Shown here: piece after piece, positions 2,898-16,539 of the stretch
Layout: each line of letters opens with the position of its first letter
Position numbering within the stretch: position 1 is the first letter of the stretch
Assembly (NCBI RefSeq): GCF_009712425.2
Contig: NZ_VCJR02000002.1
Location: 248,001-312,000, forward strand
Source of the DNA: Aquisalinus luteolus
Lineage (GTDB): Bacteria; Pseudomonadota; Alphaproteobacteria; Caulobacterales; Parvularculaceae
Length of the DNA stretch: 64,000 nucleotides
Direction of reading: 5' to 3'
Position numbers and translations under genes: made by a program
The notes under the pieces: generated by a model
Databases searched by the model: none
Seen by the model: only the letters and a program-made list of their open reading frames with translations
What the model was told of the DNA's origin: nothing

Positions 2898-3014
2898 GGG
2901 TATGTCTCTTGTATCTCGCGGCGCGCTCCGATCGGACGCGCCAGCCGTTTTCCACAATAACCGGGAAGCGGCGGGACATACAGGAAAAACCCGGCCGGGG
3001 AAAGGGGGGCGGGC

Positions 3015-3236
3015 TCAGTAGATGTCCAGCAGCAGGATGATCCCCAGCAGCACGGCGCCGATGCCCCAGGCCCAGCCGCCAACGCGCAACAGAAGGCCAA
3101 TGATGCGGGGAACTGACCTGCCTCGATACCCCAGCACGGTGATTAACCGCATGACGACGAAAAGGAAGAAGCCACCGAGCAGGGTAAGCACGGCGATGAT
3201 CAGCATCAGGTCATAAAGGGGCGTGTTATCGCTCAT
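3015..3236 (-). CDS. Small two-helix membrane protein, function unknown
   Basis: 73 residues with two strongly hydrophobic segments (about 8-32 and 46-71) joined by a short basic loop containing YRGRSVPR. No domain is recognised. It sits between rlmN and an aldo/keto reductase gene on the same strand, with separate gaps on both sides. Confidence 0.6.
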   Translation of the reverse strand: MSDNTPLYDLMLIIAVLTLLGGFFLFVVMRLITVLGYRGRSVPRIIGLLLRVGGWAWGIGAVLLGIILLLDIY

Positions 3237-3293
3237 CCTGCTATTCTGTCATCAGGACATGCCAGTGTCTTTCCCCTGTTCGGGGAGACAAGA

Positions 3294-4286
3294 TCAGATC
3301 TCGCCGCGGATCTTGCCCATGATTTCGCGGCTGTAGAAGGCTTTCAGCTCCTCGTGCAGGGCATCGTCGAGCGGGTCGAGACGGCTGACCTTGGCGTTGG
3401 CCCTGACCTGGTCGGCGGACGAGGCACCGGTGATGACGGTCGTGACTGCCGGATGGTCGAGGACCCAGCGCTGGGCAGCGTCGGCCATGGAGCAGTCCTG
3501 CGGCAGGACCGGGCGCAGGCGCTCGACGAAATCAAGTCCGGTGTCGAAAGGCAGGCCGGCAAAGGTTTCGCCGACATAGAACGCCTCGCCGTCACGGTTG
3601 AAATTGCGGTGGTCGTTTTCGGCGAACTTCTGGCCCGGCTTGTACTTGCCGGCAAGGAGCCCGGAGGCGAGTGGCAGGCGCACGATAATGGCAACGCCCT
3701 GGTCGTGGGCGGCGGGCAGGATCTCGTCTGCCATGGTCTGGCGCAGCATGTTGAAGATCAGCTGGAGGGAAGAAAGACCCTCTGCTGTCAGGGCATATTT
3801 CGCCTGCGAAACAGTTTCGACCGAGGCACCGAACCGCTTGATGAGCCCTTCGGATCTGAACTCTCGCAGATGTTCGAATACTTCGCCCTTTTCCAGCTCA
3901 CCCTCGCCGATGCAGTGCAACTGGACGAGATCGAGATTGTCAGCCTTGAGGTGTTCCAGGCAATCCTCGATATGGGCGCGCATGACGTCCTTCTCGAAGG
4001 TGCCGGGAAAACCGGCTTCCGGCCGACGTCCGATCTTTGTGGCGATGAAAAGGTCGTCGCGTTTCCCCCGCGCCTCGAGGAAGCGCCCGATCAGGCTTTC
4101 CGACCGGCCCATACCATAGACGTCTGCGGTGTCGATGAAGGTGATGCCGGCATCGACCGCGGTTTGCAAAATCTCGAACGCGTCATCCTCTGATACATCG
4201 CCCCAGTCGGCCCCGCCGAGCTGCCAGCAGCCCAGGCCGATTTCGGATACGGGTGGGCCGTCACTGCCAAACAGTCTGTTTTTCAT
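3294..4286 (-). CDS. Aldo/keto reductase
   Basis: 330-residue NADPH-dependent aldo/keto reductase. It shows the TIM-barrel signatures GLGCWQLGGADWG, the catalytic FIDTADVYGMGRSE (Asp and Tyr of the tetrad), ATKIGRR (catalytic Lys) and DLVQLHC (His). The ITGASSADQVRANA region near the C-terminus is the NADP phosphate-binding segment. The start at 4286 has a GGAGGA site six bases upstream. It resembles the YajO/PdxI-like oxidoreductases, but the substrate cannot be told from sequence. Confidence 0.93.
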   Translation of the reverse strand: MKNRLFGSDGPPVSEIGLGCWQLGGADWGDVSEDDAFEILQTAVDAGITFIDTADVYGMGRSESLIGRFLEARGKRDDLFIATKIGRRPEAGFPGTFEKDVMRAHIEDCLEHLKADNLDLVQLHCIGEGELEKGEVFEHLREFRSEGLIKRFGASVETVSQAKYALTAEGLSSLQLIFNMLRQTMADEILPAAHDQGVAIIVRLPLASGLLAGKYKPGQKFAENDHRNFNRDGEAFYVGETFAGLPFDTGLDFVERLRPVLPQDCSMADAAQRWVLDHPAVTTVITGASSADQVRANAKVSRLDPLDDALHEELKAFYSREIMGKIRGEI

Positions 4287-4905: not shown

Positions 4906-5109
4906 TCAGTCGTCAAAACTCAGTATGTCGCCGGGCTGGCAGTCCAGCTCCTTGCAGATCGCCTCCAGCGTGGAGAAGCGGATCGCCTTGGCCTTGCCCG
5001 TCTTCAGGATGGACAGGTTGGCGATGGTCACGCCGACCCGCTCGGAGAGCTCGGTCAGTGACATGCCCCGCTCCAGCAGGATCCTGTCCAGTTTTACGTT
5101 AATGGCCAT
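4906..5109 (-). CDS. XRE/Cro family helix-turn-helix regulator (YozG-like)
   Basis: 67 residues, essentially one HTH_3 domain: MSLTELSERVGVTIANLS is the helix-turn-helix, and FSTLEAICKELDCQPGDIL is the typical C-terminal half. It starts 3 bases after the DUF2975 gene, forming the widespread two-gene pair in which a tiny XRE protein accompanies a DUF2975 membrane protein. Confidence 0.9.
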   Translation of the reverse strand: MAINVKLDRILLERGMSLTELSERVGVTIANLSILKTGKAKAIRFSTLEAICKELDCQPGDILSFDD

Positions 5110-5112
5110 GCT

Positions 5113-5652
5113 TTAAACCGTGAACTCCTGCTCTTCCTGCAGTCTTGCGCCCTCACGGAAAACCTCGGCCAGCACCAGGGCGACCGCCGCCCCGAGCCAG
5201 TTTGTCAGGTCGATCGACAGCCCGCCGCCATCGCCATATTCGACGCCGAACAGTACCGCCCAGAGAAAGGCGATCGGCACGATGGCGAGCTTGGCAAGCT
5301 CTGCGAAAAAGATGACCTTGGCGATGCGCTTGAAGCGGTCGGCGTTTTCCGCCTCGAACGGGGTGCCGGCGCTGATGGTGCGCAGCACTTCCATCAATCG
5401 GGAGGAAACGACCACGAACATCGTCGCCGTGATGAAGGCCATGGTTATTTCGACGAACTCCCCCATGGTGTAGTCACTGTCTGAATCAGACCGGAACCCA
5501 TCGAGGAGGCCGTCGAAAAAACCGCCCACCGGAACGGCAATGAACATGAAGAGGGCTACGAGGCCGGTCACGAGCATCGTGATCAGCGATATGATAAAGA
5601 CGATCAGCAGGATTACGGATAGAATGCCTGCGACCTTGTTTTTCTTTGTCAT
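5113..5652 (-). CDS. DUF2975 family membrane protein
   Basis: 179 residues with four predicted transmembrane segments (about 10-35, 65-85, 110-135, 145-165). The segment FMIFVVSSRLMEVLRTISAG-like, with GTPFEAENADRFKRIA after it, is characteristic of DUF2975. It is followed at once by an XRE regulator. Biochemical function is unknown; the pairing suggests the membrane protein modulates the regulator or is its target. Confidence 0.85.
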   Translation of the reverse strand: MTKKNKVAGILSVILLIVFIISLITMLVTGLVALFMFIAVPVGGFFDGLLDGFRSDSDSDYTMGEFVEITMAFITATMFVVVSSRLMEVLRTISAGTPFEAENADRFKRIAKVIFFAELAKLAIVPIAFLWAVLFGVEYGDGGGLSIDLTNWLGAAVALVLAEVFREGARLQEEQEFTV

Positions 5653-5678
5653 TTCGTAAATCCCGCTAGAATAGAAGA

Positions 5679-5727
5679 AACAGGGTGGCCCCGTAGAGGG
5701 CGTGGGTTAAGTGGTGGCCACCCTGTT
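5679..5727. repeat. 12-base inverted repeat upstream of the DUF2975 gene
   Basis: AACAGGGTGGCC (5679-5690) pairs perfectly with GGCCACCCTGTT (5716-5727) across a 25-base loop. It lies in the gap between the 43-residue gene and DUF2975, about 27 bases upstream of the DUF2975 start, where a promoter or leader would be. It shares the CAGGGTG core with the hairpin next to it. Confidence 0.55.
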
Positions 5728-5733
5728 CTCGCT

Positions 5734-5757
5734 GGTCACCCTGGTTACAGGGTGACC
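5734..5757 (-). terminator. Hairpin spanning the stop codon of the small membrane protein gene
   Basis: GGTCACCCTG and CAGGGTGACC form a perfect 10-base stem with a four-base loop, and the loop is the TAA stop codon plus one base. There is no T-run, so this may be a mRNA-stabilising or attenuating hairpin rather than a classical terminator. Confidence 0.5.
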
Positions 5758-5876
5758 GGCATCCCCGACAGCGCGCCGAAATAACCGGCCGATACCAGGA
5801 AAACGATGGTCAGTGTGGCAAGGACGTTGACAAATCCGCCAATAGACCCGAATTTAGATGTACGTTTGTAAGGCAT
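5745..5876 (-). CDS. 43-residue single-pass membrane protein
   Basis: Sequence begins MPYKRTSKFGSIGGFVNVLA, with a basic N-terminus followed by one transmembrane segment (about 15-36). The start at 5876 has a near-perfect AAGGAGAA site; a longer frame upstream has none. The C-terminal codons form half of a 10-base hairpin. The strong ribosome site and tight structure suggest a genuinely expressed small protein. No family recognised. Confidence 0.6.
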   Translation of the reverse strand: MPYKRTSKFGSIGGFVNVLATLTIVFLVSAGYFGALSGMPVTL

Positions 5877-6012
5877 GTGACTTCTCCTTTGCTTCAGCAA
5901 GCGTTTGACTTTGACTTTACTCGGTGGCGGCTGGTTCATTCCGGTCGCCCTTTTTTTGACTTTGAAGAGGACTGTTTTGTTTTTCGTCCCTTATTGATTA
6001 TCAATATATACA

Positions 6013-6074
6013 TATCGAAAAACGATGCAATGGGTTTTTATCGAAAAACGACAAATATTTTGTGTTTTTCGATA
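6013..6074. promoter_or_regulatory. Three copies of an ATCGAAAAAC motif upstream of rdgB
   Basis: TATCGAAAAACGA occurs at 6013-6025 and 6039-6051, 26 bases apart, and the inverted form GTTTTTCGATA lies at 6064-6074, ending 22 bases before the rdgB start. The whole 220-base gap is far more AT-rich than its surroundings. Repetition in both orientations suggests an operator array for an unidentified regulator, possibly the XRE protein encoded nearby (inference). Confidence 0.5.
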
Positions 6075-6096
6075 TAGGCATAGGTAAGGCACTGAA

Positions 6097-6705
6097 ATGG
6101 CTAGGAAATTTTCTGACGAAAAAATGGTCCTCGCGAGCCACAACAAGGGCAAACTGGCCGAATTTGCGCATCTTTTTCGCCCCCACGGCATCGAAATCCT
6201 GTCCGCGGGGGAGCTGGGATTGCCCGAACCCGAGGAGACCGGCGAGACATTCGAGGATAATGCGATCCTGAAGGCGGTGGCGGCGGCAAAGGCTGCCGAC
6301 ATGCCGGCACTTGCCGACGATTCAGGGTTGGCCGCCGCCGCGCTGAACGGCGCGCCGGGTGTCTATTCCGCCCGCTGGGCCGGGCCGGAGAAGGATTTCA
6401 CCGCCGCCATGCAGCGGCTGGAGGACGAACTGATCGCCGCGGGTAATACTGACCGCTCGGCGGCGTTCGTCTGCGTTCTCGCCCTCGCCTGGCCCGATGG
6501 CCATGTCGAGACCGTGCGCGGCGAGGCCAAGGGCCGGCTGATCTGGCCGCCGCGCGGCGATGGCGGCTTCGGTTACGACCCGGTCTTCATGCCGGTCGGA
6601 CGGACCAAGACCTTCGCCGAGATGAAGCCCGAAGACAAAAAGGAAATTTCCCACCGGGCCGAGGCGTTCGAGCGCCTGATCAAGACCTGTATAGCGAGCG
6701 AATGA
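6097..6705 (+). CDS. rdgB: RdgB/HAM1 non-canonical purine NTP pyrophosphatase
   Basis: Hydrolyses dITP, XTP and dITP-like nucleotides to monophosphates, keeping them out of DNA and RNA. 202 residues. The N-terminal nucleotide loop is VLASHNKGKLAEF, followed by ETFEDNAILKA, the catalytic ADDSGL with PGVYSARW, then GGFGYDPVF and the C-terminal SHRAEAF. The stop overlaps the hemW start (ATGA), so the two are translationally coupled, a common arrangement in alphaproteobacteria. Confidence 0.97.
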   Translation: MARKFSDEKMVLASHNKGKLAEFAHLFRPHGIEILSAGELGLPEPEETGETFEDNAILKAVAAAKAADMPALADDSGLAAAALNGAPGVYSARWAGPEKDFTAAMQRLEDELIAAGNTDRSAAFVCVLALAWPDGHVETVRGEAKGRLIWPPRGDGGFGYDPVFMPVGRTKTFAEMKPEDKKEISHRAEAFERLIKTCIASE

Positions 6706-7823
6706 GCGATACAGGAAAGACCGGCCTTTATATCCACTGGCCGTTCTGCACGCGCATCTGCCCCTATTGCGACTTCAACGTCTACAAGGATCGCGGTGCC
6801 GACGAGGCCGCGTGGGAAGAGGCGCTGCGTGCCGATCTGGAGTGGTGGGCGCAGAAGGCTGGAGCTACTCTGTATACAAGCGTCTATTTCGGCGGCGGCA
6901 CGCCGTCGCTGATGGCGCCGTCGCTGGCCAGGGCGGTAATCGAGGCGGCTGCGCCTGTTGCTGGCGCTGAAATTACGCTGGAGGCCAACCCGACCGATGC
7001 CGAGCGAGAGCGGTTCACTGACTTTGCCGCTGCCGGGGTCAACCGCCTGTCGCTTGGGGTGCAGTCCCTGCGCGACGAGGCGCTGGCATTCCTCGGCCGA
7101 AACCATTCCGCAACCGAGACGATCAAGGTGCTGGAGTTCGCACGGGGCGCTTTCGAGCGGCTGACTTTCGATCTCATCTATGCCCGCCCGGGCCAGAGCC
7201 TCGATGTCTGGCGGGCGGAGCTGGCCGAGGCGCTGGCACTCGCCAAGGGGCATTTGTCGCTTTACCAGCTGACGATCGAACCGGGCACGGCTTTCGAAAA
7301 GGCGGTGGCGCGAGGCGACTGGGCCCCTGCCGATGAGGAGATGACCGCCGCCCATTACGATCTGGCGCAGGCGATGTGCGCAGACGCCGGGCTCGCGCCC
7401 TATGAAGTCTCCAACAATGCTGCGCCGGGCCACGAGGCACAGCACAACCTGCTCTACTGGCGTTATCAGGATTATGTCGGCATCGGGCCGGGCGCCCATG
7501 GCCGGGTGCGGATCGACGGCCAGCTTTACGAGACGGTCGCGCTGGACAAGCCGGGGGAGTATCTCGCCGCGACGCCTGAACAGCGCTTTGCGTTGTCGCC
7601 ACTGACCGGCGTGGAACAGGCAGTGGAAATGCTGTCCATGGGCCTGCGCCTGAGCGAGGGGATCAGCCTTGCCAGGTATGAGGCGCTGGCGGGCGCGCCG
7701 TTGAATGACCGCACCCTGACGGAAATGGCTGGTGATGGCCTCGTCCACGTCGAGGGCGACCGGCTGTCTCTGACCGCCGATGGCCGCCGGGTGCTGAACG
7801 CGATAGTCGCCAGCCTCGTCTGA
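6702..7823 (+). CDS. hemW: HemW heme chaperone, radical SAM (coproporphyrinogen-oxidase-like)
   Basis: 373 residues. The radical-SAM cluster motif lies near the N-terminus at C16, C20 and C23 in FCTRICPYCDF, followed by YFGGGTPSL, SLGVQSLRD and the HemN_C domain (GIGPGAHGR, EMLSMGLRL). HemW proteins bind and deliver heme. They keep CX3CX2C but lack the extra residues required for HemN oxygen-independent oxidase activity. It overlaps rdgB by four bases. Confidence 0.93.
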   Translation: MSDTGKTGLYIHWPFCTRICPYCDFNVYKDRGADEAAWEEALRADLEWWAQKAGATLYTSVYFGGGTPSLMAPSLARAVIEAAAPVAGAEITLEANPTDAERERFTDFAAAGVNRLSLGVQSLRDEALAFLGRNHSATETIKVLEFARGAFERLTFDLIYARPGQSLDVWRAELAEALALAKGHLSLYQLTIEPGTAFEKAVARGDWAPADEEMTAAHYDLAQAMCADAGLAPYEVSNNAAPGHEAQHNLLYWRYQDYVGIGPGAHGRVRIDGQLYETVALDKPGEYLAATPEQRFALSPLTGVEQAVEMLSMGLRLSEGISLARYEALAGAPLNDRTLTEMAGDGLVHVEGDRLSLTADGRRVLNAIVASLV

Positions 7824-7839
7824 GCGCTCACAATCCCGC

Positions 7840-7869
7840 TTGTCACGCTCCTGCCATTTCTGGGATAAT
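7840..7869 (+). promoter_or_regulatory. Candidate sigma-70 promoter of the five-paralogue array
   Basis: TTGTCA (7840-7845), 18 bases, then GATAAT (7864-7869). It lies 26 bases upstream of the first array gene, whose GGGAGG ribosome site follows. It is the only gap upstream of the array. Confidence 0.45.
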
Positions 7870-7895
7870 CTGCGTATTCTGGCGGGAGGCCGGGT

Positions 7896-8630
7896 ATGTT
7901 GTTGCGCAGGATGATGGAGCATGTGCGGACCCAGAACTGGTTTGCCGTCCTGCTCGATTTCGGCATCGTGGTCGTCGGTGTGTTCATTGGTATGCAGGTG
8001 TCGAACTGGAACGGCGTGAACCAGCAGCGCCAGATCGAAGACGAGATCATCGAAAGGCTGCATGCGGACTTTACAGAGATCGTCGCCTGGGCGAGTGCTG
8101 GCCGGGACTATGTCGAGGGCCTTCATGCCCACACCGGCCCATTGGTCGATGCCGGTGCGGCGGGATTTATCCTGCCAGAGCAGGAGGAGCCGCTGCTGAC
8201 GGCGATCAATGAGTGCTACGACCTGCTCATCACCCTGAAGACGTCGGCGACCTATACCGAGATCGTTTCCTCCGGACAAGTGCGTCTGATCCGCAATGAT
8301 GCGCTGCGTCAGGCGCTGGCAGGGTATCAGGCAAGCAGTGATGAATCCCATACTGCGTTTCAGGCTTTGAGCCAGGCTTTCATGCGTCATATCGATATCC
8401 TGGACAGCCATGCGATTATCGCGCCTGATGTGGCCAGCCTGCCCGTCGGCTCGAACATCGTGGTGACCGGTTATGACTGGGCGGCGCTAGATGATGATCC
8501 GCGGCTGCCGGCGACATTCCGCTTCTTCCATAATCTGCGCAGCAATGAATATCTGTTCTTCAACGGACTGGCCGAGGAGGCGCAGGCGGTGCTGACAATT
8601 CTCGAGGAAGAAACGGCGCTCAGACCCTGA
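7896..8630 (+). CDS. Array membrane protein 1 (paralogue family, DUF6090-like)
   Basis: 244 residues. A basic, aromatic N-terminus (MLLRRMMEHVRTQNW) is followed by one transmembrane helix (about 17-38) ending in the hallmark QVSNWN, then a roughly 200-residue soluble region, probably periplasmic. A central motif, TYTEIVSSGQVRLIRND, is shared with array members 2, 3 and 5. The NWN boundary and YxEIxxSG motif recall the DUF6090 proteins of Bacteroidetes; I infer distant kinship only. It begins after a candidate promoter and is separated from the rest of the array by an NTF2-like gene. Function unknown. Confidence 0.8.
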   Translation: MLLRRMMEHVRTQNWFAVLLDFGIVVVGVFIGMQVSNWNGVNQQRQIEDEIIERLHADFTEIVAWASAGRDYVEGLHAHTGPLVDAGAAGFILPEQEEPLLTAINECYDLLITLKTSATYTEIVSSGQVRLIRNDALRQALAGYQASSDESHTAFQALSQAFMRHIDILDSHAIIAPDVASLPVGSNIVVTGYDWAALDDDPRLPATFRFFHNLRSNEYLFFNGLAEEAQAVLTILEEETALRP

Positions 8631-8726
8631 GGGCCGGTATCCATGACTGCTGGCCAAGGCGTTGCGTATCCGCCCGGTTGCAATAATATTGACAGGGTAA
8701 AGGCGCAAAGGGGGCGTGATGAGTAG

Positions 8727-9212
8727 ATGGGCAGTTTACTTGCGGTGGTCGGTGTAATGGCGGCGGTGCTGCCGGGGCTTCCCGGGGCCGGGGCCAGCCC
8801 TTCGGATAGGGGCGCAGATGGCGTGCGTGCGGCGCGGACGGCCTTCAACAAGGCGATCGCAGAGGCAGATGCCGTTACCATCGGCAAGATCCTTGCCGAG
8901 GATACCGTGCTGGTTGCGGGCACCAACAGCGCGGTCATCTCCGGCCGGGCCGAGCAGGTCGGCGTGTGGGAAGCAGACTTCGCCGATCCGGATCGTCTTG
9001 TCTATCATCGGAAGACCGCCAAGGTGACCCTGTCGCCGCTCTATCCCATGGCGATGGAGACGGGCACGTGGCGGGGTTCCCCAGCGGGTAATGGCACCGA
9101 CTGGGTCGGCGGCAGCTATACCGCGAAATGGCGGCTGATCGACGGGCGCTGGCAGGTCGAGGCGGAAACCTACATGACCACGGGCTGCGGCGGCGCTCTT
9201 TGTGATGACTGA
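8727..9212 (+). CDS. Exported NTF2/SnoaL-like (DUF4440-type) protein
   Basis: 161 residues with a signal peptide (cleavage likely after GAGAS, about residue 24). The alpha+beta fold signatures are VRAARTAFNKAIAEADAVTIGKILAEDTVLVAG, then GRAEQVGVWEADF and the terminal strands YTAKWRLIDGRWQVEAETYM. Two cysteines at the extreme C-terminus (TGCGGALC) could form a disulfide. It is inserted between array members 1 and 2 on the same strand, 24 bases before member 2, so it may work with the membrane proteins. Ligand unknown. Confidence 0.8.
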   Translation: MGSLLAVVGVMAAVLPGLPGAGASPSDRGADGVRAARTAFNKAIAEADAVTIGKILAEDTVLVAGTNSAVISGRAEQVGVWEADFADPDRLVYHRKTAKVTLSPLYPMAMETGTWRGSPAGNGTDWVGGSYTAKWRLIDGRWQVEAETYMTTGCGGALCDD

Positions 9213-9236
9213 CGGGCGAGTAGCAAGGAGAAAGCC

Positions 9237-9983
9237 ATGCTCCTGAGGCGGATGATATCCCACGTCAAGGCGCAGAACTGGCTGGCTGTGTTTCTGGACT
9301 TCTTCATTGTCGTGGTCGGTGTGCTGATCGCCTTTCAGATAACCGAGTGGAGTGAGCAGCGAGAGGCGGCAAAACGGCGCGAGGCAGCGCTCGTCCGGCT
9401 GCACGACGAATCCGAGCTGGCTGTCGGCTATTTCAGGGAAATCGTGGGCATGTATGACGATCGTTCTGTCCACCGTTCCGAGGCCATTCGGCGCATGATT
9501 GACAATGACTGGGAGGGGGTGGATCTTGACGCGATGACGACCGGTATCACGTCTGTCGGTATTCTGCCGTCTGCATCGCCGCCTCGCAGTGTTTATGATG
9601 AAGTGATCAGCACAGGGCAGTTTTCGGAACTCGGTGACCCGGCCTTGCGAACCTCGATATCGGATTATTACGGACGGCTTTCTTTCCTGCAGGGGCAGAT
9701 CCTCTATACAAGATCAATCAACGCATACTTCCCCGATTGGCAACACCCGGGCATCATCCTGACGTTTGAACCCGGGACGGCGAGGGAGCGTGACTATGAG
9801 ATCGATTTCGATCTCGTCAGTAATGATCCGGATTTCATCGAGGGCATGATCGCGGGCAATAACTCGATGCGTGCGGTCGCCGGATGGTGGCGCGCCGTGC
9901 TGGAGGGGGCAGAGCAGATGTGCAAAGAGCTTGCCCGCGCGACTGGCCAGCCCTGCGAGCCTGTAGAAGAGAGTATTGGCTGA
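9237..9983 (+). CDS. Array membrane protein 2
   Basis: 248 residues, same layout as its neighbours: MLLRRMISHVKAQNW, a transmembrane helix (17-38) ending in QITEWS rather than QxxNWN, then a soluble domain with SVYDEVISTGQFSELGD. Strong ribosome site AAGGAGA. A lone C-terminal pair of cysteines (MCKELARATGQPC) is not shared by all members. Its TGA shares one base with the ATG of member 3, so the two are translationally coupled. Confidence 0.8.
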   Translation: MLLRRMISHVKAQNWLAVFLDFFIVVVGVLIAFQITEWSEQREAAKRREAALVRLHDESELAVGYFREIVGMYDDRSVHRSEAIRRMIDNDWEGVDLDAMTTGITSVGILPSASPPRSVYDEVISTGQFSELGDPALRTSISDYYGRLSFLQGQILYTRSINAYFPDWQHPGIILTFEPGTARERDYEIDFDLVSNDPDFIEGMIAGNNSMRAVAGWWRAVLEGAEQMCKELARATGQPCEPVEESIG

Positions 9984-10747
9984 TGCTGCTGCGCCGTATG
10001 ATGGAACATGTCCGTACCCAGAACTGGCTGGCTGTCTTTCTGGACTTCATCATTGTCGTCGTCGGTGTGTTCATCGGTATCCAGGTGGCGAACTGGAATA
10101 ATGTCCGGTCTGACCGGGCCTATGAGAGGGATATCCTGTACCGGTTGCATAATGAAATTCTAACTCTCGAGACCGGGCGAGAAGTGCCGGGACTTGTACA
10201 ACACAACAAAGCTTTGCGGGAATTTCTACCCAGACTGAAGGCGGGGCTCGAAGACACAGAGGTCGATGATCTGACATGCCGTGGGATTATCAGATCCCAT
10301 GTCCTCAATGGTCCGCCAGATAGCTTGCCCGCGCTGGATGAGCTTATTTCATCAGGTCGTATGAAGACACTGAGAAATACTGACATTCGAAGCTTCGGAA
10401 GTTCCTTTTTGCAGAAACGTGAATTTGGCCGCGAACTGATTACAGAGTTTGACAATGACTTGCGTGACCTCGGGCGCGAGTTTCCGGAACTGATGCACAT
10501 TCAGATTGCCAACGATCCGGAAACGGAACAGGGTTCATCGCAGGATTTCACCTGCGATCTCGTTGGCATGCGTAATAATACAGCTTTTCAAACGGCGTTG
10601 ATAAATAACGTTGATCGTTTCAATGGGATCATGAGTTATCACTTTGATTTTGTTGGTGCCGACCTTGATGCGCTTCATCAAGCTGTGGATCAGGAATTGC
10701 GTATTCAACATATAGCTGACGATGATACGCAGGAAGAACGACTATGA
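9983..10747 (+). CDS. Array membrane protein 3
   Basis: 254 residues. The N-terminal 40 residues are almost identical to member 1 (MLLRRMMEHVRTQNW, then FIIVVVGVFIGIQVANWN). The soluble part contains ALDELISSGRMKTLRNTDI, the family motif. Codon use after about 10140 is visibly more AT-rich than in the other members, which suggests divergence or a different recent history of this domain. It starts inside the stop of member 2 and overlaps member 4 by ATGA. Confidence 0.8.
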   Translation: MLLRRMMEHVRTQNWLAVFLDFIIVVVGVFIGIQVANWNNVRSDRAYERDILYRLHNEILTLETGREVPGLVQHNKALREFLPRLKAGLEDTEVDDLTCRGIIRSHVLNGPPDSLPALDELISSGRMKTLRNTDIRSFGSSFLQKREFGRELITEFDNDLRDLGREFPELMHIQIANDPETEQGSSQDFTCDLVGMRNNTAFQTALINNVDRFNGIMSYHFDFVGADLDALHQAVDQELRIQHIADDDTQEERL

Positions 10748-11490
10748 TTTTCCGCCGTATCAAAGCCCATATCGAAAAGGAAAACTGGTTCGCGGTCTTC
10801 CTCGATTTCCTGATCGTCGTGTCCGGCGTGGTCATCGGGGTGCAGATCGGCAACTGGAATGCCGATAGGCAGGACCATCAGGCCTATGAACAGGCGCTGG
10901 AGCGTTACAGGGCCGAGATCGAACTGAATCTTGCCACGCTCGATACCGTCGATGAAGGTGTCGAAGAGGCGCTGGTCGTGGTTGCTGACGGTTTCGATGC
11001 CTTGCTGGCGTGCGAGGAAATCCCCGCGAACCGGCTGGCGGTCGAGAGGGCCATCAACAAGACCATGGGCACTTACGGCATCAACCTGCGGGACCAGGCC
11101 TTGCTGGACCTTACGGCGGCGGCCACCTATCTGGACCAGCAGTCCGAGGCTGACCGGGAGCGCTTCGGCAATACACGGCACCGGATGGAGATCTTCCTGC
11201 GCGAAGCGGACTATATAGAAAAGATTCCGCTACAGGAGCGGGCCCAGAATAACCCGGTTATTTCCGTCGGCAGTATCGAGGAGCGCCGGGTGGAGTATCA
11301 GGGTACGGATTACTCTCGGGCAGATCGCACGCTGGCCCTCGCCGTGCCACTGGATGTCGCCTGCAAGGACGACATGCTGCTCAAGTCTCTCTATACATGG
11401 GAGCGCTGGCAACGTGCCCTGCCCGCGGTGTCGAGAATCCTGCGGCAACAGCTGGAAGAAGACCTTGCCTATCTGGAGGAACGCCAGTGA
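10744..11490 (+). CDS. Array membrane protein 4 (divergent, motif lost)
   Basis: 248 residues. N-terminus MIFRRIKAHIEKENW, transmembrane helix ending QIGNWN, then a mostly helical soluble region. Unlike its siblings it lacks the YxEIxxSG motif; the corresponding place reads LLDLTAAATYLDQ. The C-terminus ends in a predicted coiled coil (RILRQQLEEDLAYLEERQ). It overlaps member 3 by ATGA and member 5 by GTGA. Confidence 0.78.
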   Translation: MIFRRIKAHIEKENWFAVFLDFLIVVSGVVIGVQIGNWNADRQDHQAYEQALERYRAEIELNLATLDTVDEGVEEALVVVADGFDALLACEEIPANRLAVERAINKTMGTYGINLRDQALLDLTAAATYLDQQSEADRERFGNTRHRMEIFLREADYIEKIPLQERAQNNPVISVGSIEERRVEYQGTDYSRADRTLALAVPLDVACKDDMLLKSLYTWERWQRALPAVSRILRQQLEEDLAYLEERQ

Positions 11491-12425
11491 TCCTGCGTCG
11501 TTTCATGATCCATGTCAGCGAGCAGAACTGGACGGCGGTTGTGCTGGATTTCGCCATCGTCGTGTTCGGCGTCTATATCGGCCTGCAGCTTGGCAACTGG
11601 AACGATGCCCGCGAGGAGCGTGAGCGCGAAACCGCAATCCTGCAGCGCCTGCATGTCGATTTCGAACAGCTTGAACTGCTCGACACCTATGCCGCTGCAT
11701 CGGCAGAGCAGGGGTTTCGCAGTGCTGACCTGCTGATCGGTGCCGTCGAGGATGGCACACTGACACAGTATGAGGATGAGCAGCTGTACCCGGCCGTCCA
11801 GGCTGCACTGACCGTCAGGCCGCCAAACGGTCCGTCCTCGACCTATACAGAGATTGTTGCGTCCGGCCAGGTCAGCCTGTTGCAGAACAGCGAGCTGCGC
11901 GAATGGCTGGCGACCTATGACAAGGGCCAGGATGCCTATGCCACGGTGCATTCCAATCTGTATGACATGGCCTTGCGCGAGGCGTTCCCGATCTGGCGGA
12001 TGGCAGAGTTCGATGACACCATAAACGATGAGGGCCGGGTTGTGCTCGGGCCGGTCAGCGGGTTTGACTTCGACCGGCTGGCGACAGATCCGGAGCTTGT
12101 CTATGCGATGCGGGCGGCAAGACGGATCATGGGCACGCATCATAGCTATACGGAGCATCTGGCGAACATGTCGAACCAGATCAGCCTGATCCTGGAAGAA
12201 GAGCTGGGAGAGGGGCCGTCGGAGCAGATCGTCACGATCCGCGAACAGCGCCAGTCCTATCGGGAACAGGCAGAAGAGATGTCACGCCAGCGGGCTGAGA
12301 AAGAGGCCAATGCCGCAACATCGGCGGCATCACCGGCTGAAGCGGAGGCGGACCAGGTGTCTGAAAACCCGACAGCGGCCCCGGTGCCTGACGATATCGT
12401 GGAAGAGGTTACAGAAGGGGAGTAG
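11487..12425 (+). CDS. Array membrane protein 5 with coiled-coil and acidic tail
   Basis: 312 residues from a GTG start that overlaps the stop of member 4 (GTGA). N-terminus MILRRFMIHVSEQNW, transmembrane helix ending QLGNWN, then the motif TYTEIVASGQVSLLQNSEL, closest to member 1. It has a unique extension of about 70 residues: a charged coiled coil (EQIVTIREQRQSYREQ onward) and an Ala/Glu/Pro-rich acidic tail. As the last gene and the only one with this tail, it may be a scaffold or partner-binding subunit (inference). Confidence 0.8.
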   Translation: MILRRFMIHVSEQNWTAVVLDFAIVVFGVYIGLQLGNWNDAREERERETAILQRLHVDFEQLELLDTYAAASAEQGFRSADLLIGAVEDGTLTQYEDEQLYPAVQAALTVRPPNGPSSTYTEIVASGQVSLLQNSELREWLATYDKGQDAYATVHSNLYDMALREAFPIWRMAEFDDTINDEGRVVLGPVSGFDFDRLATDPELVYAMRAARRIMGTHHSYTEHLANMSNQISLILEEELGEGPSEQIVTIREQRQSYREQAEEMSRQRAEKEANAATSAASPAEAEADQVSENPTAAPVPDDIVEEVTEGE

Positions 12426-12432
12426 CTGGCGG

Positions 12433-13068
12433 TCAGAGATTATCCGTGCGGAAGGAATGCACCTTGCCATGGGTGTCCATGACGATGATCCATTTCCCGT
12501 CTTCGGAAATATCCGCCGTCAGCGGGCGGGCATCGTCGATCCGGTCATAGCCAAGCGGCAGGGTCGCGACAGGGTCGCCGGTTTCAATTTCTTCGATAAC
12601 AAGCGTGCACACGCCGGAGCGCCATCCGGACGGGGCGCCAATGACCGGTTCGCCGGGGATGCGCCTTTCCGGCTGGAAGCAGTCTATGCGCGTGTCGTAG
12701 ACGGGGTTGGTCTTCGTCACGGCCATGCAGCGCCTGTCGCTGCGCTCGCCCGTCTCCAGGGAATAGACGGAGCATCTGTTGCCGGTCCCGGTATCTGCCG
12801 GCGTGGCGATGGAGATCGCGTCTCCATGAAAGACCGATGTGATGGCGCAGGTGCTGACATGGCCGTTGCGCACCATCCACGGGATCTCGTCATTGAGCGT
12901 CTCGTATTCGGTATAGCAGAATGGCCCGCCATCCATGGTCGCGGTGGCCTTGGCCAGCGTCTCCGTCGGCAGGTCATAGCTGTTGGTGCTGGTCGTTGCC
13001 GTCATGGCGCAGGCACCTAGCGATGCTGCAAGGGCTGTGATGGCAGCCAGCCGCAGATAACGCTTCAT
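12433..13068 (-). CDS. Predicted lipoprotein with conserved cysteines, function unknown
   Basis: 211 residues from MKRYLRLAA. Lipoprotein signal with lipobox LGAC (cysteine about residue 20). The mature part has several cysteines and a C-terminal ADISEDGKWIIVMDTHGKVH stretch that resembles a single beta-propeller blade. It converges on the membrane-protein array with only seven bases between the stop codons. No family recognised. Confidence 0.6.
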   Translation of the reverse strand: MKRYLRLAAITALAASLGACAMTATTSTNSYDLPTETLAKATATMDGGPFCYTEYETLNDEIPWMVRNGHVSTCAITSVFHGDAISIATPADTGTGNRCSVYSLETGERSDRRCMAVTKTNPVYDTRIDCFQPERRIPGEPVIGAPSGWRSGVCTLVIEEIETGDPVATLPLGYDRIDDARPLTADISEDGKWIIVMDTHGKVHSFRTDNL

Positions 13069-13090
13069 GATACCTGCCCTGTCCATGTGC

Positions 13091-14437
13091 TCAGTATCCT
13101 TCTAGCATGGCGTCTGGCAGCATGGAGGTCTGGGTGACGAAGCTGGTCGGCGCGGGGTCGATGACGCGGATGCCGCCGCCATTGATTTCCAGGATCGCAA
13201 GGCCGCGTTCGACCCGGCCATCGAGGGTCAGGCGGAACAGGCCGTCGGCACCGAGATAGCCGTTCGGGTCGGCGATGTTGGAGGCCGAATAGCGATTGAA
13301 TTTCGGCAGGTCGGCGAGGCTGGCCGTCAGCAGGGCCGCGTCATAGGCAAGAGAGGCAAGGCGCGGCGGCTGCGAGCCGTAGACGCTGGCATAGCGGCGG
13401 TTGAAAGCCTCCGACTGGGACGGGTCCGGCGCGGCAAACCAGCCGCCCGAAAGCGCCGGCTCGCGCGTCAGCTGCGGGTTGTTCCATGACGAAACCCCAA
13501 GCACCTTGATGCAGCGGACATTGACATCGTAATAGGGCAGCAGCGGCGCAAGCGCCCGCAAATTCGTGCCTTGTTCCGGCATCAAAACGGCCTGGTAGCC
13601 AGAGCCGGACGTACCCGTCGAGTTCGTTGCCATGCCCAGCTCGTTGCGGGCGGAAACATCGGCGCAGCTGCCGGCATATTGGGCGAGGCGCTTGGCCGGT
13701 TGCATCATCGCGTCCGGCGAGGGCACATATTGTTCCTCGTGGACGACGACACCGCCGCGCACGAAGGTCTCCTCATAGAAGGAATTGCGGACGCGCTGGC
13801 CATATTCGGTTTGCGGGGCGAGCAGGCCGAAGCGGGTATAGCCGCGCTTGATTGCGAAATCCGTCACCCGGGCGACTTCCATCTCGGGTGGGAAGGACAG
13901 GAGATAGACGCCATTGCCGGCAATCTGGGTGTCTGACGAGAAGGCGATCATCGGTACACCGGCGCGGCGGGTAACTTCGGCAGCGGCCTCGACGGAGGAG
14001 GACAGCAGCGGGCCGAGCACGATTTCCGCGCCCTCGCGAAGGGCTTCCTCTGCCTTGGCACGGGCGCCCTCAGCTGTGCCGCCCGTGTCCTTGGGGATCA
14101 GGAGGAAGCGGTCATTCTGAGCCTCGAAAGCCGCCATCTGGGCAGCATTGGACATTGCCTCGGCAATGACGCGAACATTCTCCGACGAGCCGGTCATCGG
14201 CAGGAGGAGGGCGACGCGCACCGGCTCCTTGTCACCGAGCTGTTCGGTGGTGACGTATTCGTTCGGGTCGTAGGGCTCGAATTCCGGTTCTTCCTCGACA
14301 GGCTCCTGCGGCTGCGGCTGGGCGATGACCGGCGGCTGCGGGCGCGGCTGGTTGACCGGTGCTGTCGTCTCGCACCCGGCAAGGAACAGGCTTGCGCCCA
14401 GCGTGGCGAACAGGGAAATCTTCAGGAAACGGTTCAT
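13091..14437 (-). CDS. Penicillin-binding protein activator LpoA-like lipoprotein
   Basis: 448-residue outer-membrane lipoprotein (lipobox LAGC, Cys22) with a proline/glutamate-rich linker (about 25-65). A periplasmic binding protein type-1 domain follows, starting VRVALLLPMTGSSENV and containing IVLGPLLSSSVEAAAEV and YTRFGLLAPQTEYGQRV. In gammaproteobacteria the equivalent domain of LpoA stimulates PBP1a. It is divergent from rsmI, as lpoA is next to rsmI in Escherichia coli, and yraN and a BON-domain gene follow, as expected. The role in peptidoglycan synthesis is inferred from family and synteny. Confidence 0.85.
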   Translation of the reverse strand: MNRFLKISLFATLGASLFLAGCETTAPVNQPRPQPPVIAQPQPQEPVEEEPEFEPYDPNEYVTTEQLGDKEPVRVALLLPMTGSSENVRVIAEAMSNAAQMAAFEAQNDRFLLIPKDTGGTAEGARAKAEEALREGAEIVLGPLLSSSVEAAAEVTRRAGVPMIAFSSDTQIAGNGVYLLSFPPEMEVARVTDFAIKRGYTRFGLLAPQTEYGQRVRNSFYEETFVRGGVVVHEEQYVPSPDAMMQPAKRLAQYAGSCADVSARNELGMATNSTGTSGSGYQAVLMPEQGTNLRALAPLLPYYDVNVRCIKVLGVSSWNNPQLTREPALSGGWFAAPDPSQSEAFNRRYASVYGSQPPRLASLAYDAALLTASLADLPKFNRYSASNIADPNGYLGADGLFRLTLDGRVERGLAILEINGGGIRVIDPAPTSFVTQTSMLPDAMLEGY

Positions 14438-14627
14438 GTCGGTCTTGCCCTCTCATCGCCCCTGACGTGGCTCGCTTGGCCGGGTGGGCGGGTGAAACAT
14501 GCTGTACAGGCGGGGTAATCACCCGCAACGCATACTGTGTCGGTTGTGCCCAGTCTAGCAACCGCCTTGCGTCAGGCAATACATGTTTTGGTGACAGAAG
14601 AGGTCGGAAGCTGGCATAGAGCAAGGC

Positions 14628-15464
14628 ATGAGCCTTCAACCCGGCCTTTATGTGGCAGCGACCCCGATCGGTAACCTGAAAGACATCACCCTCAGGGTGA
14701 TCGAGGCCCTGCGCGAGGCGGACCTGATCCTGTGCGAAGATACGCGGGTGACAGGCAAGCTGCTCAATGCGCATTCGATCAAGACGCCGATGAAGGCCTA
14801 TCACGACCATAACGCCGCCCGTGTGCGGCCGGAGGTGCTGGAGCGGCTGGAAAGCGGCGCGCGCATCTGCCTTGTCTCGGATGCTGGTACGCCGCTGATT
14901 TCCGATCCCGGCTACAAGCTGGTGCGCGAAGTGCGCGATGCCGGGCTTGCCGTCTTCACCTTGCCGGGGCCATCGGCGATGGTCGCGGCGCTGTCGGTTG
15001 CGGGTGCGCCGACGGACCGCTTCCTGTTTGCGGGCTTCCTGCCGGTAAAGTCCGGTGCGCGGAAGAGCGAGCTGGAAGCGCTGAAGGCGGTTCCCGCGAC
15101 GCTGGTCTTCTATGAGACCGGTCCGCGGCTCGCATCCTGTCTTGCCGACATGGCCGAGGTGCTGGGGTCGCGAAAGGTAGCGGTGGCGAGAGAGCTGACC
15201 AAGCTGCACGAGGAAGTGCGCGAAGGGCTGCCGGGCGATCTTTCCGCTGTCTATATGGAAGAAGGTGCGCCGAAAGGCGAGATCGTCGTGGTCGTCCATC
15301 CGCCTGCCGAGGACGAACCGGGCGCGGCCGATGCCGAGGCGATCATCGAACAGCTGCTGGAGGACCATTCGGTCAAGGAGGCGGCAACGATCGCTGCCGA
15401 ACAGACTGGCCTGCCGCGCAAGCAGATGTATGACATCGCGCTGACCCTGAAGAAGGGGCGGTAG
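14628..15464 (+). CDS. rsmI: 16S rRNA (cytidine1402-2'-O)-methyltransferase RsmI
   Basis: 278 residues, tetrapyrrole-methylase fold. Signatures are YVAATPIGNLKDITLR, LCEDTRVTGKLL, LVSDAGTPLISDPGYKLVRE, VFTLPGPSAMVAALSVAG, and the C-terminal KGEIVVVVHPP. It methylates the 2'-hydroxyl of C1402 in the decoding centre, together with RsmH. Its TAG shares a base with the GTG of yraN. Confidence 0.97.
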   Translation: MSLQPGLYVAATPIGNLKDITLRVIEALREADLILCEDTRVTGKLLNAHSIKTPMKAYHDHNAARVRPEVLERLESGARICLVSDAGTPLISDPGYKLVREVRDAGLAVFTLPGPSAMVAALSVAGAPTDRFLFAGFLPVKSGARKSELEALKAVPATLVFYETGPRLASCLADMAEVLGSRKVAVARELTKLHEEVREGLPGDLSAVYMEEGAPKGEIVVVVHPPAEDEPGAADAEAIIEQLLEDHSVKEAATIAAEQTGLPRKQMYDIALTLKKGR

Positions 15465-15832
15465 TGTCGCCACGCCCCTTAAGACAGGAAGCCGAGCGGC
15501 GGGGGCGGTTTGCCGAATCCATCGCGGCCATACTCCTGCGGCTGAAGGGCTATCGCATTCTTGCCATGCGCTGGAAGGCCCGGGGCGGCGAGGTCGATAT
15601 TATCGCCTCGAAAGCGGGCATACTCGTCTTCGTCGAGGTCAAGGCAAGGACGAGCCACGAGGCCGGTATTGCCGCCGTTACCCCGCAGGCACGCCAGCGG
15701 ATCGCCGTCGCGGCGGAACAGTTCATCCGCCACAGGCGTCTCCACCCTGAGCCGGCCTGCCGGTATGACCTGATCACTGTCCGCAATCTGACACCAAGGC
15801 ACCATAAAAATGCCTGGAGATCAGGCGACTAG
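15464..15832 (+). CDS. yraN: YraN family (UPF0102) nuclease-like protein
   Basis: 122 residues from a GTG that overlaps the rsmI stop. The PD-(D/E)XK-like core reads ILAMRWKARGGEVDIIASKAG followed by LVFVEVKARTS, with the acidic and lysine residues of the nuclease motif in place. The family is conserved next to rsmI across proteobacteria; its cellular role is still unclear. Confidence 0.92.
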   Translation: MSPRPLRQEAERRGRFAESIAAILLRLKGYRILAMRWKARGGEVDIIASKAGILVFVEVKARTSHEAGIAAVTPQARQRIAVAAEQFIRHRRLHPEPACRYDLITVRNLTPRHHKNAWRSGD

Positions 15833-15854
15833 GTCGAGTGAGTAGCGTTATTTC

Positions 15855-15882
15855 CGCCCGGTAGCGTTTCGGTAACCGGGCG
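15855..15882 (+). terminator. Weak stem-loop after yraN
   Basis: CGCCCGGT (15855-15862) and ACCGGGCG (15875-15882) pair across a 12-base loop. There is only a TTAACC tail, so it is a doubtful terminator in the 140-base gap before the BON-domain gene. Confidence 0.35.
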
Positions 15883-15972
15883 TTAACCATCCTGAACTCT
15901 ATGTCACTGGTATTGCCCGGCGTTACGCGGCATTTTTGAACGGTTATTTCGGGTCCAGAGAGGATTTGAACC

Positions 15973-16539
15973 ATGAACAAGACACTGAAGATCTCTACAA
16001 AAGCGCTGATCGCCCTGTGCGCCGCGACCATGCTGGCGACCGGCTGCGCCCAGAACCGCACGATCGGCGGCAATGTCGATGATGCGGCAGCCGACATCGC
16101 GCTGAAGGCGAACCTCGTCAAGGATGAGAAATACGACTATTCCGACGTCGATATCACCGTTTTCGAGGCGCGGGTGATGCTGACCGGCTCGATGCGTACC
16201 GAGGAAGGCAAGGCCCATCTTGAGCGGCTGGCGCAGAACTCCCCCAATGTGAAGCAGGTGATCAACGAGATCATCGTCGGCGAGAAGACATCGTTCCAGC
16301 AGGGCACCCGCGACGCGCTGATCGACCAGCGCCTTGCCGCTGCACTGCTGACCGATACGGGTGTCGTTCGGCGCAACTACCAGTTCACGGTGTCCAACGG
16401 CGTTGTCTACATGCTGGGCGTCGCGCAGGGCCCGACCGAGCTGACCCGGGCGACCGAACAGGCCCGCCGCATCGACGGCGTGAAAAAGGTCGTGAGCCAT
16501 GTCATGTATGTGGGTGATCCTTCCCGCGTAACGCGCTAG
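15973..16539 (+). CDS. Dual BON-domain lipoprotein (DolP/YraP-like)
   Basis: 188 residues, lipobox ATGC (cysteine about residue 25). Two BON domains follow: IALKANLVKDEKYDYSDVDITVF and VMLTGSMRT for the first, then QRLAAALLTDTGVV and VVYMLGVAQG for the second. In Escherichia coli the homologue DolP maintains outer-membrane integrity and supports BAM. Placement behind rsmI-yraN matches the E. coli lpoA-rsmI-yraN-diaA-dolP order (diaA missing here). Ribosome site AGAGAGGA. Confidence 0.9.
   Translation: MNKTLKISTKALIALCAATMLATGCAQNRTIGGNVDDAAADIALKANLVKDEKYDYSDVDITVFEARVMLTGSMRTEEGKAHLERLAQNSPNVKQVINEIIVGEKTSFQQGTRDALIDQRLAAALLTDTGVVRRNYQFTVSNGVVYMLGVAQGPTELTRATEQARRIDGVKKVVSHVMYVGDPSRVTR

What the first reader, a model, noticed from the sequence alone, without database searches (positions are those of the whole stretch)
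7896..12425. Tandem array of five paralogous single-pass membrane proteins with an inserted NTF2-like protein
All five share an N-terminal block (M-[IL]-x-R-R ... H-[VI]-x3-N-W-x-A-V), one helix and a Q-x-x-[NE]-W boundary, then diverged soluble domains. Members 2 to 5 overlap by one to four bases, so they are translationally coupled and probably made in fixed ratio. Tandem expansion with diversified periplasmic parts suggests a hetero-oligomer or a family under diversifying selection. I know of no described system with this layout.
Basis: partly seen in the sequence, partly recalled or inferred. Interest (0 to 1): 0.78.

Follow-up and report, generated by a model that had tools for sequence, protein, structure and literature searches.

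The report
Recombining array of membrane-anchored periplasmic proteins
Five neighbouring bacterial genes share one nearly constant membrane anchor but carry very different outer parts; relatives in other bacteria show that these outer parts are swapped behind the anchor like interchangeable heads, so this looks like a recombining set of recognition or protection proteins whose target is still unknown.

Summary
Five tandem genes (7896-12425) encode single-pass proteins with a shared 40-residue N-terminal anchor block and diverged C-domains; a DUF4440 (NTF2-fold) gene lies between members 1 and 2. The family is DUF6090-like, although all five score below Pfam's cut-off. It is patchy in the order (62 of 150 genomes, own included; 1 to at least 18 copies), often in same-strand arrays overlapping by 4 or 1 bp.

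The main new result is modularity. Over 410 members, anchor and C-domain identity are uncorrelated (r = 0.02; two halves of the C-domain give 0.52). Anchors resemble others of their own locus far more than C-domains do. An A. flavus member shares a 91%-identical C-domain with a genome of another family, with a breakpoint at codon 37. At the same hemW-lpoA locus A. flavus holds two non-orthologous members; five other relatives hold none there.

A fixed hetero-oligomer is therefore unlikely, and gene-wide dN/dS (0.06-0.35) gives no sign of diversifying selection. The best reading is a recombining repertoire of membrane-tethered periplasmic binders, closest in style to orphan-immunity strings. 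The function is inferred; no toxin or other ligand was found.

The parts
7896..8630 (+). member 1 (244 aa): anchor block + helical-bundle domain
   Evidence: AlphaFold2 model mc07a33089b18, mean pLDDT 93.1
8727..9212 (+). inserted DUF4440/SnoaL-like (NTF2-fold) protein, 161 aa; 81% identical protein at the same locus in A. flavus
9237..9983 (+). member 2 (248 aa)
9237..9338 (+). first 102 bp of member 2: 87% DNA identity to the first A. flavus member, after which the two are only distantly alike (swap point)
9983..10747 (+). member 3 (254 aa), overlaps member 2 by 1 bp
10744..11490 (+). member 4 (248 aa), overlaps member 3 by 4 bp; model has a longer beta-hairpin before the last helix than member 1
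11487..12425 (+). member 5 (312 aa, GTG start), overlaps member 4 by 4 bp; C-terminal tail about 60-70 residues longer than the other members
7896..8015 (+). anchor block of member 1 (codons 1-40; helix 2-11 and start of helix 15-79 with the membrane span); the other four genes begin with the same block
6702..7823 (+). hemW-like flank (name recalled); lies next to the LpoA-like gene without an array in G002, G005, G006, G014, G024
13091..14437 (-). LpoA-like flank on the other side (name recalled)

Best explanation
This is a recombining repertoire array of DUF6090-like proteins. Each protein is held in the inner membrane, N-terminus in, by a nearly constant 40-residue block (short helix plus membrane span with conserved D21, G28, Q34, W38) and displays an all-helical bundle in the periplasm. 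The anchor block (about 120 bp) recurs every 0.7-0.8 kb, so each C-domain coding stretch is bounded by two anchor repeats. Recombination in these repeats, or conversion of them, adds, removes and swaps C-domains while the proteins stay anchored, coupled and expressed. Shown: array, coupling by overlap, anchor/C-domain decoupling, a C-domain shared between families without its anchor, locus turnover. Inferred: topology, homologous recombination as the engine, and the role. I think the role is neutralising or capturing varied incoming agents in the periplasm (rival toxins more likely than phage), like an orphan-immunity string.
For: Anchor vs C-domain identity: r = 0.02 over 68,659 pairs of 410 members; split-half control within the C-domain r = 0.52; nearest neighbour by anchor lies in the same genome for 48% of 309 members against 10% by C-domain, chance 3%. 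Anchor identity 0.741 in the same locus, 0.674 same genome other locus, 0.577 other genomes; C-domain 0.188/0.172/0.169 (genome labels partly assigned by hand). 42 of 108 pairs with C-identity of 0.6 or more have an anchor identity under 0.75 (41 of 107 without one redundant locus). Sharp breakpoints at codon 41 (L157/L182, likelihood ratio 58) and, between A. flavus and a genome of another family, codon 37 (likelihood ratio 51, C-domain 91% identical), with identity ending at the end of the gene. Same-locus turnover between sister species. Overlaps of 4 or 1 bp in 185 of 241 neighbours. Models of two members show the same anchored helical bundle.
Against: No toxin, secretion system or ligand is linked; VipB (T6SS) occurs in 2 of 150 genomes of the order, neither among the 62 with family members. 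PADLOC scan of 118 members: no consistent hit. No fold match that points to a function. No hypervariable face: mismatch rates are even over the C-domain (0.24-0.29). Recent pairs mostly keep their anchor: at C-identity of 0.8 or more only 3 of 28 have an anchor under 0.75. In the 42 low-anchor pairs the fitted breakpoint has the lower side on the left in 23, and at codons 30-50 in only 3; in the other 19 it points the other way. Pairs with a related first half of the C-domain do have somewhat more similar anchors (0.665 against 0.573). Anchor DNA in the window array is only 62-79% identical, low for homologous recombination today.
Confidence: 0.5

Rival explanations
1. Periplasmic ligand-sensing or adaptor repertoire: the constant anchor docks on one conserved inner-membrane partner (kinase, protease, channel) and the varied helical bundles bind different small ligands or substrates.
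For: Anchor conserved at protein level while synonymous codons in the window array are close to what codon usage predicts (115 of 215 same-codon sites, 98 expected); weak structural resemblance to sensor helical bundles (NarQ, PilJ, MCP2201, Z about 7.3-7.4), a level the tool calls common for bundles; companion TPR, single-span and multi-span membrane proteins next to some arrays.
Against: No constant neighbour: among 124 of 231 flanking proteins scanned, the commonest Pfam family has 4. Anchors follow the locus more than the genome, which points to local conversion rather than fit to one host partner.
Confidence: 0.2
2. Fixed hetero-oligomer of five subunits made in set ratio.
For: Overlapping genes, shared membrane helix.
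Against: Copy number from one upward, non-orthologous content at the same locus in a sister species.
Confidence: 0.05
3. Lineage-specific expansion of a selfish or near-neutral kind: arrays grow and shrink by unequal crossing-over, and most members have no specific ligand.
For: Patchy presence (62 of 150 in the order, 6 of 289 in a class sample, own genome included); toxin-antitoxin pairs inside two arrays.
Against: Purifying selection on C-domains (dN/dS 0.06-0.35); few broken copies among the listed matches (the lists are capped); a C-domain shared between families.
Confidence: 0.15
4. Exclusion of phage DNA entry by membrane-anchored periplasmic proteins.
For: Location and topology would fit; a TIR-TPR gene lies next to one array.
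Against: No confirmed relative in viral contigs with the A2 alignment, and none in phage or plasmid records with member 3; no consistent PADLOC family. Defence genes need not be on phages, so this is weak.
Confidence: 0.1

Closest known systems
DUF6090 (Pfam PF19578)
   Same: The membrane span and part of the C-domain align; 100 of 118 relatives match at E up to 0.1, best 2.9e-11.
   Different: The five window members score 12.0-17.8 bits against a cut-off of 23.5, so they are DUF6090-like, not filed members; no paper in the library names the family.
T7SS immunity strings esaG / tipC / tsaI (PMC9484751; abstract, 12 passages and the Discussion read)
   Same: Strings of non-identical paralogues, variable copy number, conserved blocks, recombination in them (esaG, tipC); tsaI has a conserved first 75 residues (two membrane spans) and a variable rest, close to this layout.
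   Different: Gram-positive, linked to known toxins; TsaI has five predicted spans and little sign of recombination; exchange of C-domains between families of an order is not reported in what I read.
Homogeneous polyimmunity loci (PMC3482391; 12 passages and section 39 read)
   Same: Same-strand tandem paralogues with small gaps, no polymorphic toxin seen between them, content differing between close relatives, patchy lineages.
   Different: Defined by families regarded as immunity proteins; DUF6090 was not among the families in the passages I saw; at least one genome here holds several arrays.
S. aureus tandem lipoproteins (lpl), as described in PMC9484751
   Same: Tandem paralogues with a shared block where recombination occurs and variable copy number.
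   Different: Lipoproteins with a central shared block; relatedness not tested here.

Membership tests
DUF6090 (PF19578) | Pfam gathering score (23.5 bits) for the window proteins | tested here: not met
   12.0-17.8 bits for the five; six-frame search of the genome, none over the cut-off
DUF6090 (PF19578) | detectable homology of close relatives to the profile | tested here: met
   100 of 118 members of A2 at E up to 0.1, best 2.9e-11
Homogeneous polyimmunity locus | tandem paralogues of one family, same strand, small gaps | tested here: met
   185 of 241 neighbour pairs overlap by 4 or 1 bp
Homogeneous polyimmunity locus | content differs between close relatives | tested here: met
   between species; no strains of one species compared
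Homogeneous polyimmunity locus | not interrupted by toxin genes or cassettes | tested here: inconclusive
   no polymorphic toxin among 19 of 25 inside genes scanned, but CcdAB and ParDE-type pairs in two MAG arrays
Homogeneous polyimmunity locus | usually one locus per genome | tested here: inconclusive
   G024 has members on several contigs (C57, C58, C78, C89 and others); not counted over genomes
Homogeneous polyimmunity locus | family known to neutralise a toxin | not testable with these tools
   no assay; no linked toxin found
T7SS immunity string (esaG/tipC/tsaI) | homology to EsaG, TipC or TsaI (DUF443) | tested here: inconclusive
   no such family in Pfam/NCBIfam scans of the five or among the 25 of 51 families shown for 118 relatives; no direct comparison made
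T7SS immunity string (esaG/tipC/tsaI) | recombination in conserved blocks between paralogues | tested here: met
   analogous signal, by my own measures and not by RDP4:
Integron cassette array | attC site between genes | tested here: not met
   members 2-5 overlap, leaving no room; the gaps before member 1 and before the DUF4440 gene were not scanned for attC, and no integrase was searched

The most novel reading that the evidence does not exclude
A gene-scale repeat/cassette system without a dedicated recombinase: the anchor-coding repeat at the start of every gene serves both as the membrane address and as the recombination platform, and the overlapping gene ends make each C-domain a compact exchangeable unit. 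Bacteria of several families of one order (and marine gammaproteobacteria) thereby trade periplasmic recognition heads from a shared pool, as an adaptive defence repertoire against rival toxins or phages.
Probability: 0.3. Interest if true: 0.82.

Novelty: new variant of a known kind. Interest (0 to 1): 0.6.

Why it matters
An uncharacterised protein family turns out to behave like a polymorphic, modular repertoire, the evolutionary pattern of genes caught in conflict or recognition. That makes the function of DUF6090-like proteins testable: delete an array and challenge the strain with neighbours, or exchange heads behind one anchor. It would also extend recombining-immunity-string logic to alphaproteobacteria and marine gammaproteobacteria, with C-domains found in different families of an order. 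A second uncharacterised single-span family found beside arrays (Q-x-R-Q motif) may belong to the same system.

Tried and rejected
Promoter/terminator scan: numbers at chance level; one promoter-like site at 7840-7869. Rfam at gathering scores: nothing in 5000-16000. NCBIfam and PHROGs: no meaningful hits. Solved structures by sequence: 5 chance-level hits. Foldseek of the member 1 model against PDB and viral models: no match with E up to 0.001; VIA second looks for members 1 and 4: generic helical bundles only; this does not show that the fold is new. Prepilin-like and ExbD-like readings of the anchor were considered from memory only and dropped, as no such Pfam family appeared for the window proteins or among the families shown. 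Immunity to an own T6SS: not supported. C-domain without anchor: a C-only search found 59 of 150 genomes, against 62 with the whole protein; I did not check each hit for its anchor. Hypervariable tip loop: not supported. Integron reading rejected for members 2-5.

Limits: r = 0.02 is partly due to saturation of C-domain identity, so the split-half control and the high-C pairs carry the argument. The 260-member set contains a few mis-started copies of the window's own genes; these were replaced in the 410-member set. Redundant loci were removed by exact DNA identity and by hand; one redundant truncated copy (L177) stayed in. The p-value printed assumes 20 inside genes scanned; it was 19 of 25, partly picked by eye, so only '5 of 25 at least' is claimed. 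Only 124 of 231 flanking proteins were scanned, large ones (600 aa or more) left out and looked at separately. In one search nine of the eleven strong hits come from genomes that supplied rows of the query.
Full report
WHAT IS THERE. Window 7896-12425 holds five same-strand genes that share an N-terminal block, with a DUF4440 (NTF2-fold) gene between the first and second. Against member 1 the others are 26-34% identical; 18 of the 25 invariant columns lie in residues 4-38. Members 2/3 overlap by 1 bp, 3/4 and 4/5 by 4 bp. The genome has one further family member far away (C4:133537). Flanks 85-87% identical in DNA and a hemW-like protein 82% identical place the genome next to Aquisalinus flavus (L098 and L145 hold the same sequence); NCBI puts that species in Parvularculales.

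FAMILY. All five match Pfam DUF6090 weakly and below its cut-off (12.0-17.8 vs 23.5 bits). Of 118 relatives, 100 match it at E up to 0.1, best 2.9e-11. No paper in the library holds DUF6090 or PF19578. Whole-genome searches, own genome included in each count: 25 of 41 near relatives, with up to 28 matches; 62 of 150 genomes of the order, 1 to at least 18 scored copies, 6 of them with one; 6 of 289 of a class sample; 14 of 398 of a phylum sample. Among named genomes it also occurs in marine gammaproteobacteria such as Marinicella, Kangiella and Paraglaciecola. No confirmed relative was found in viral contigs (alignment A2), nor in plasmid or phage records (member 3 only).

ARRAYS ARE COMMON AND OVERLAPS ARE GENERAL. 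Of 76 loci from named contigs, 44 hold two or more members and 32 a single one, some cut by contig ends. After removing redundant loci, 241 neighbouring same-strand pairs: 141 overlap by 4 bp, 44 by 1 bp, 1 otherwise, 13 are 0-100 bp apart, 42 more than 100. L043 holds 12 members in one run. The coupling is therefore not special to this set of five.

CONSTANT ANCHOR, VARIABLE HEAD. In 260 unique members the first 40 columns are 61% identical on average, the rest 15-21%. AlphaFold2 models of member 1 (pLDDT 93.1) and member 4 (91.5) both give a short helix 2-11, a helix from residue 15 to 79 or 89 that carries the membrane span, and a helical bundle; short strands before the last helix in member 1 are a longer beta-hairpin in member 4. 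Orientation N-in follows from the arginines before the span (inference). Fold searches give only generic helical bundles.

ANCHORS AND HEADS HAVE DIFFERENT GENEALOGIES. Over 68,659 pairs of 410 members anchor and head identity are uncorrelated, r = 0.02. The same measure between two halves of the head gives r = 0.52. Nearest neighbours by anchor are in the same genome for 48% of 309 members, by head for 10%, chance 3%. Anchor identity falls from 0.741 (same locus) to 0.674 (same genome, other locus) to 0.577 (other genome), while head identity stays at 0.17-0.19. In anchor DNA, 153 of 1194 same-locus pairs are at least 85% identical against 4 of 1200 sampled pairs from different loci. Of 108 pairs with head identity of 0.6 or more, 42 have an anchor identity under 0.75. 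The clearest: L157/L182 (same genus), head 0.98, anchor 0.69, breakpoint at codon 41; A. flavus first member (L023) with L182, a genome of another family of the order, head 0.91, anchor 0.59, breakpoint at codon 37; DNA identity rises to about 90% after nucleotide 120 and drops at the end of the gene.

RESULTS AGAINST A NEAT PICTURE. At head identity of 0.8 or more only 3 of 28 pairs have an anchor under 0.75, so most recent pairs keep their anchor. In the 42 low-anchor pairs the best breakpoint has its lower side on the left in 23, and at codons 30-50 in 3; in 19 it points the other way, mostly with low likelihood ratios. Pairs with a related first half of the head (674) have somewhat more similar anchors than all pairs (0.665 vs 0.573). 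Exchange is real in the clear cases, but its rate and exact junctions are not settled.

THE SAME LOCUS IN RELATIVES. In A. flavus the order is hemW, DUF4440 (81% identical), a multi-span membrane protein, two members, then the same flank. Neither member is an ortholog of any of the five (29-50% over matched parts), but the first 102 bp of window member 2 are 87% identical to the first A. flavus member (22 of 27 same-amino-acid codons identical in the first 40, against 5 of 29 in the rest). Of seven further regions with hemW, five (G002, G005, G006, G014, G024) show the LpoA-like gene about 35-290 bp from hemW with no array between; in G037 and G033 no LpoA match lay in the fetched stretch. In that second pair of related genomes (G037, G033) two members are clear orthologs (head 0.76-0.77), the other combinations are not (0.28 or less), and one ortholog pair has an anchor identity of only 0.59.

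SELECTION. dN/dS of the head is 0.06-0.35 in all computable pairs: purifying on average. Mismatches spread evenly over the head, lower only in the motif at 118-143. Codon identity in the window anchors is only slightly above expectation (115 of 215, 98 expected; rest 121 of 335, 143 expected), so protein-level constraint keeps the anchor there, with some homogenisation elsewhere.

COMPANIONS. DUF4440-type proteins lie inside arrays in L049, L050, L052, L068 and L071 (5 of 25 inside genes at least) and inside or directly beside arrays in L185, L191, G016 and L085; such genes number 2-7 per genome in seven genomes. A second single-span family (Q-x-R-Q motif, about 168 aa, no Pfam hit in the two members scanned) overlaps or adjoins arrays in many loci. 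In 25 genomes searched, 12 of 15 array-bearing ones and 1 of 10 without arrays have a match; the 11 matches with E below 1e-60 are in array-bearing genomes, ten within about 120 bp of a member by the positions, and the one of G705 about 0.6 kb away; nine of the eleven genomes supplied rows of the query, and several of the 12 weaker matches lie away from arrays. The window genome and A. flavus have none. A multi-span protein occurs beside arrays in A. flavus, L050, G032 and G798, and a TPR protein with weak FlgO similarity upstream of several. Two arrays of MAGs hold toxin-antitoxin pairs.

MECHANISM. Shown: modular exchange in clear cases, turnover, overlap coupling. Inferred: because every head is flanked by two copies of the anchor repeat, homologous recombination or conversion in the repeat can swap heads without breaking the operon. 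Role (inferred): a repertoire of membrane-tethered periplasmic binders. The nearest documented analogues are T7SS immunity strings, TsaI above all in layout (conserved first 75 residues with two spans, variable remainder; PMC9484751), and polyimmunity loci (PMC3482391). I do not file the array as either: no toxin is linked, no homology was seen, and T6SS is absent from the array-bearing genomes of the order sample (2 of 150 positive, both outside the 62). Phage exclusion, sensing and adaptor roles remain open.

VERDICT.

Noticed in passing
L146:1540-2025, L150:1560-2078, L051:7496-7981 and others (alignment A6): Uncharacterised single-span family with Q-x-R-Q after the span, overlapping or adjoining arrays; its row in L184 looks like a chimera of two subgroups (start of one, remainder of the other).
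   Followed up: partly
L049:5568-6491: One protein joins a membrane-span start that resembles the Q-x-R-Q family (by eye) to a DUF4440 domain, linking two companion families.
   Followed up: no
L060:1412-2005 and 2942-3546; L071:5189-5865: CcdAB and ParDE pairs (L060) and a ParD with a ParE-like neighbour without Pfam hit (L071) sit between array members in two Robiginitomaculum MAGs; a ParDE-like pair by eye lies beside the singleton in L109.
   Followed up: partly
L145:4914-5636, L050:9799-10500, L157 and L182: A multi-span membrane protein (no Pfam hit for the A. flavus copy) recurs beside arrays in alpha- and gammaproteobacteria.
   Followed up: partly
L068:3030-5456 (-): TIR-TPR protein on the opposite strand near the start of an array.
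   Followed up: no
L036:895-2817, L050:133-2004, L189, L191, L194: TPR proteins with weak FlgO similarity and a conserved KRRN-type start lie just upstream of or inside arrays.
   Followed up: partly
L083 and L090, position 8001-8747: A conserved singleton in two Henriciella species (C-domain 84% identical, similar neighbours); L007, L008 and L090 singletons are the nearest head relatives of window member 4 (0.46-0.54).
   Followed up: partly
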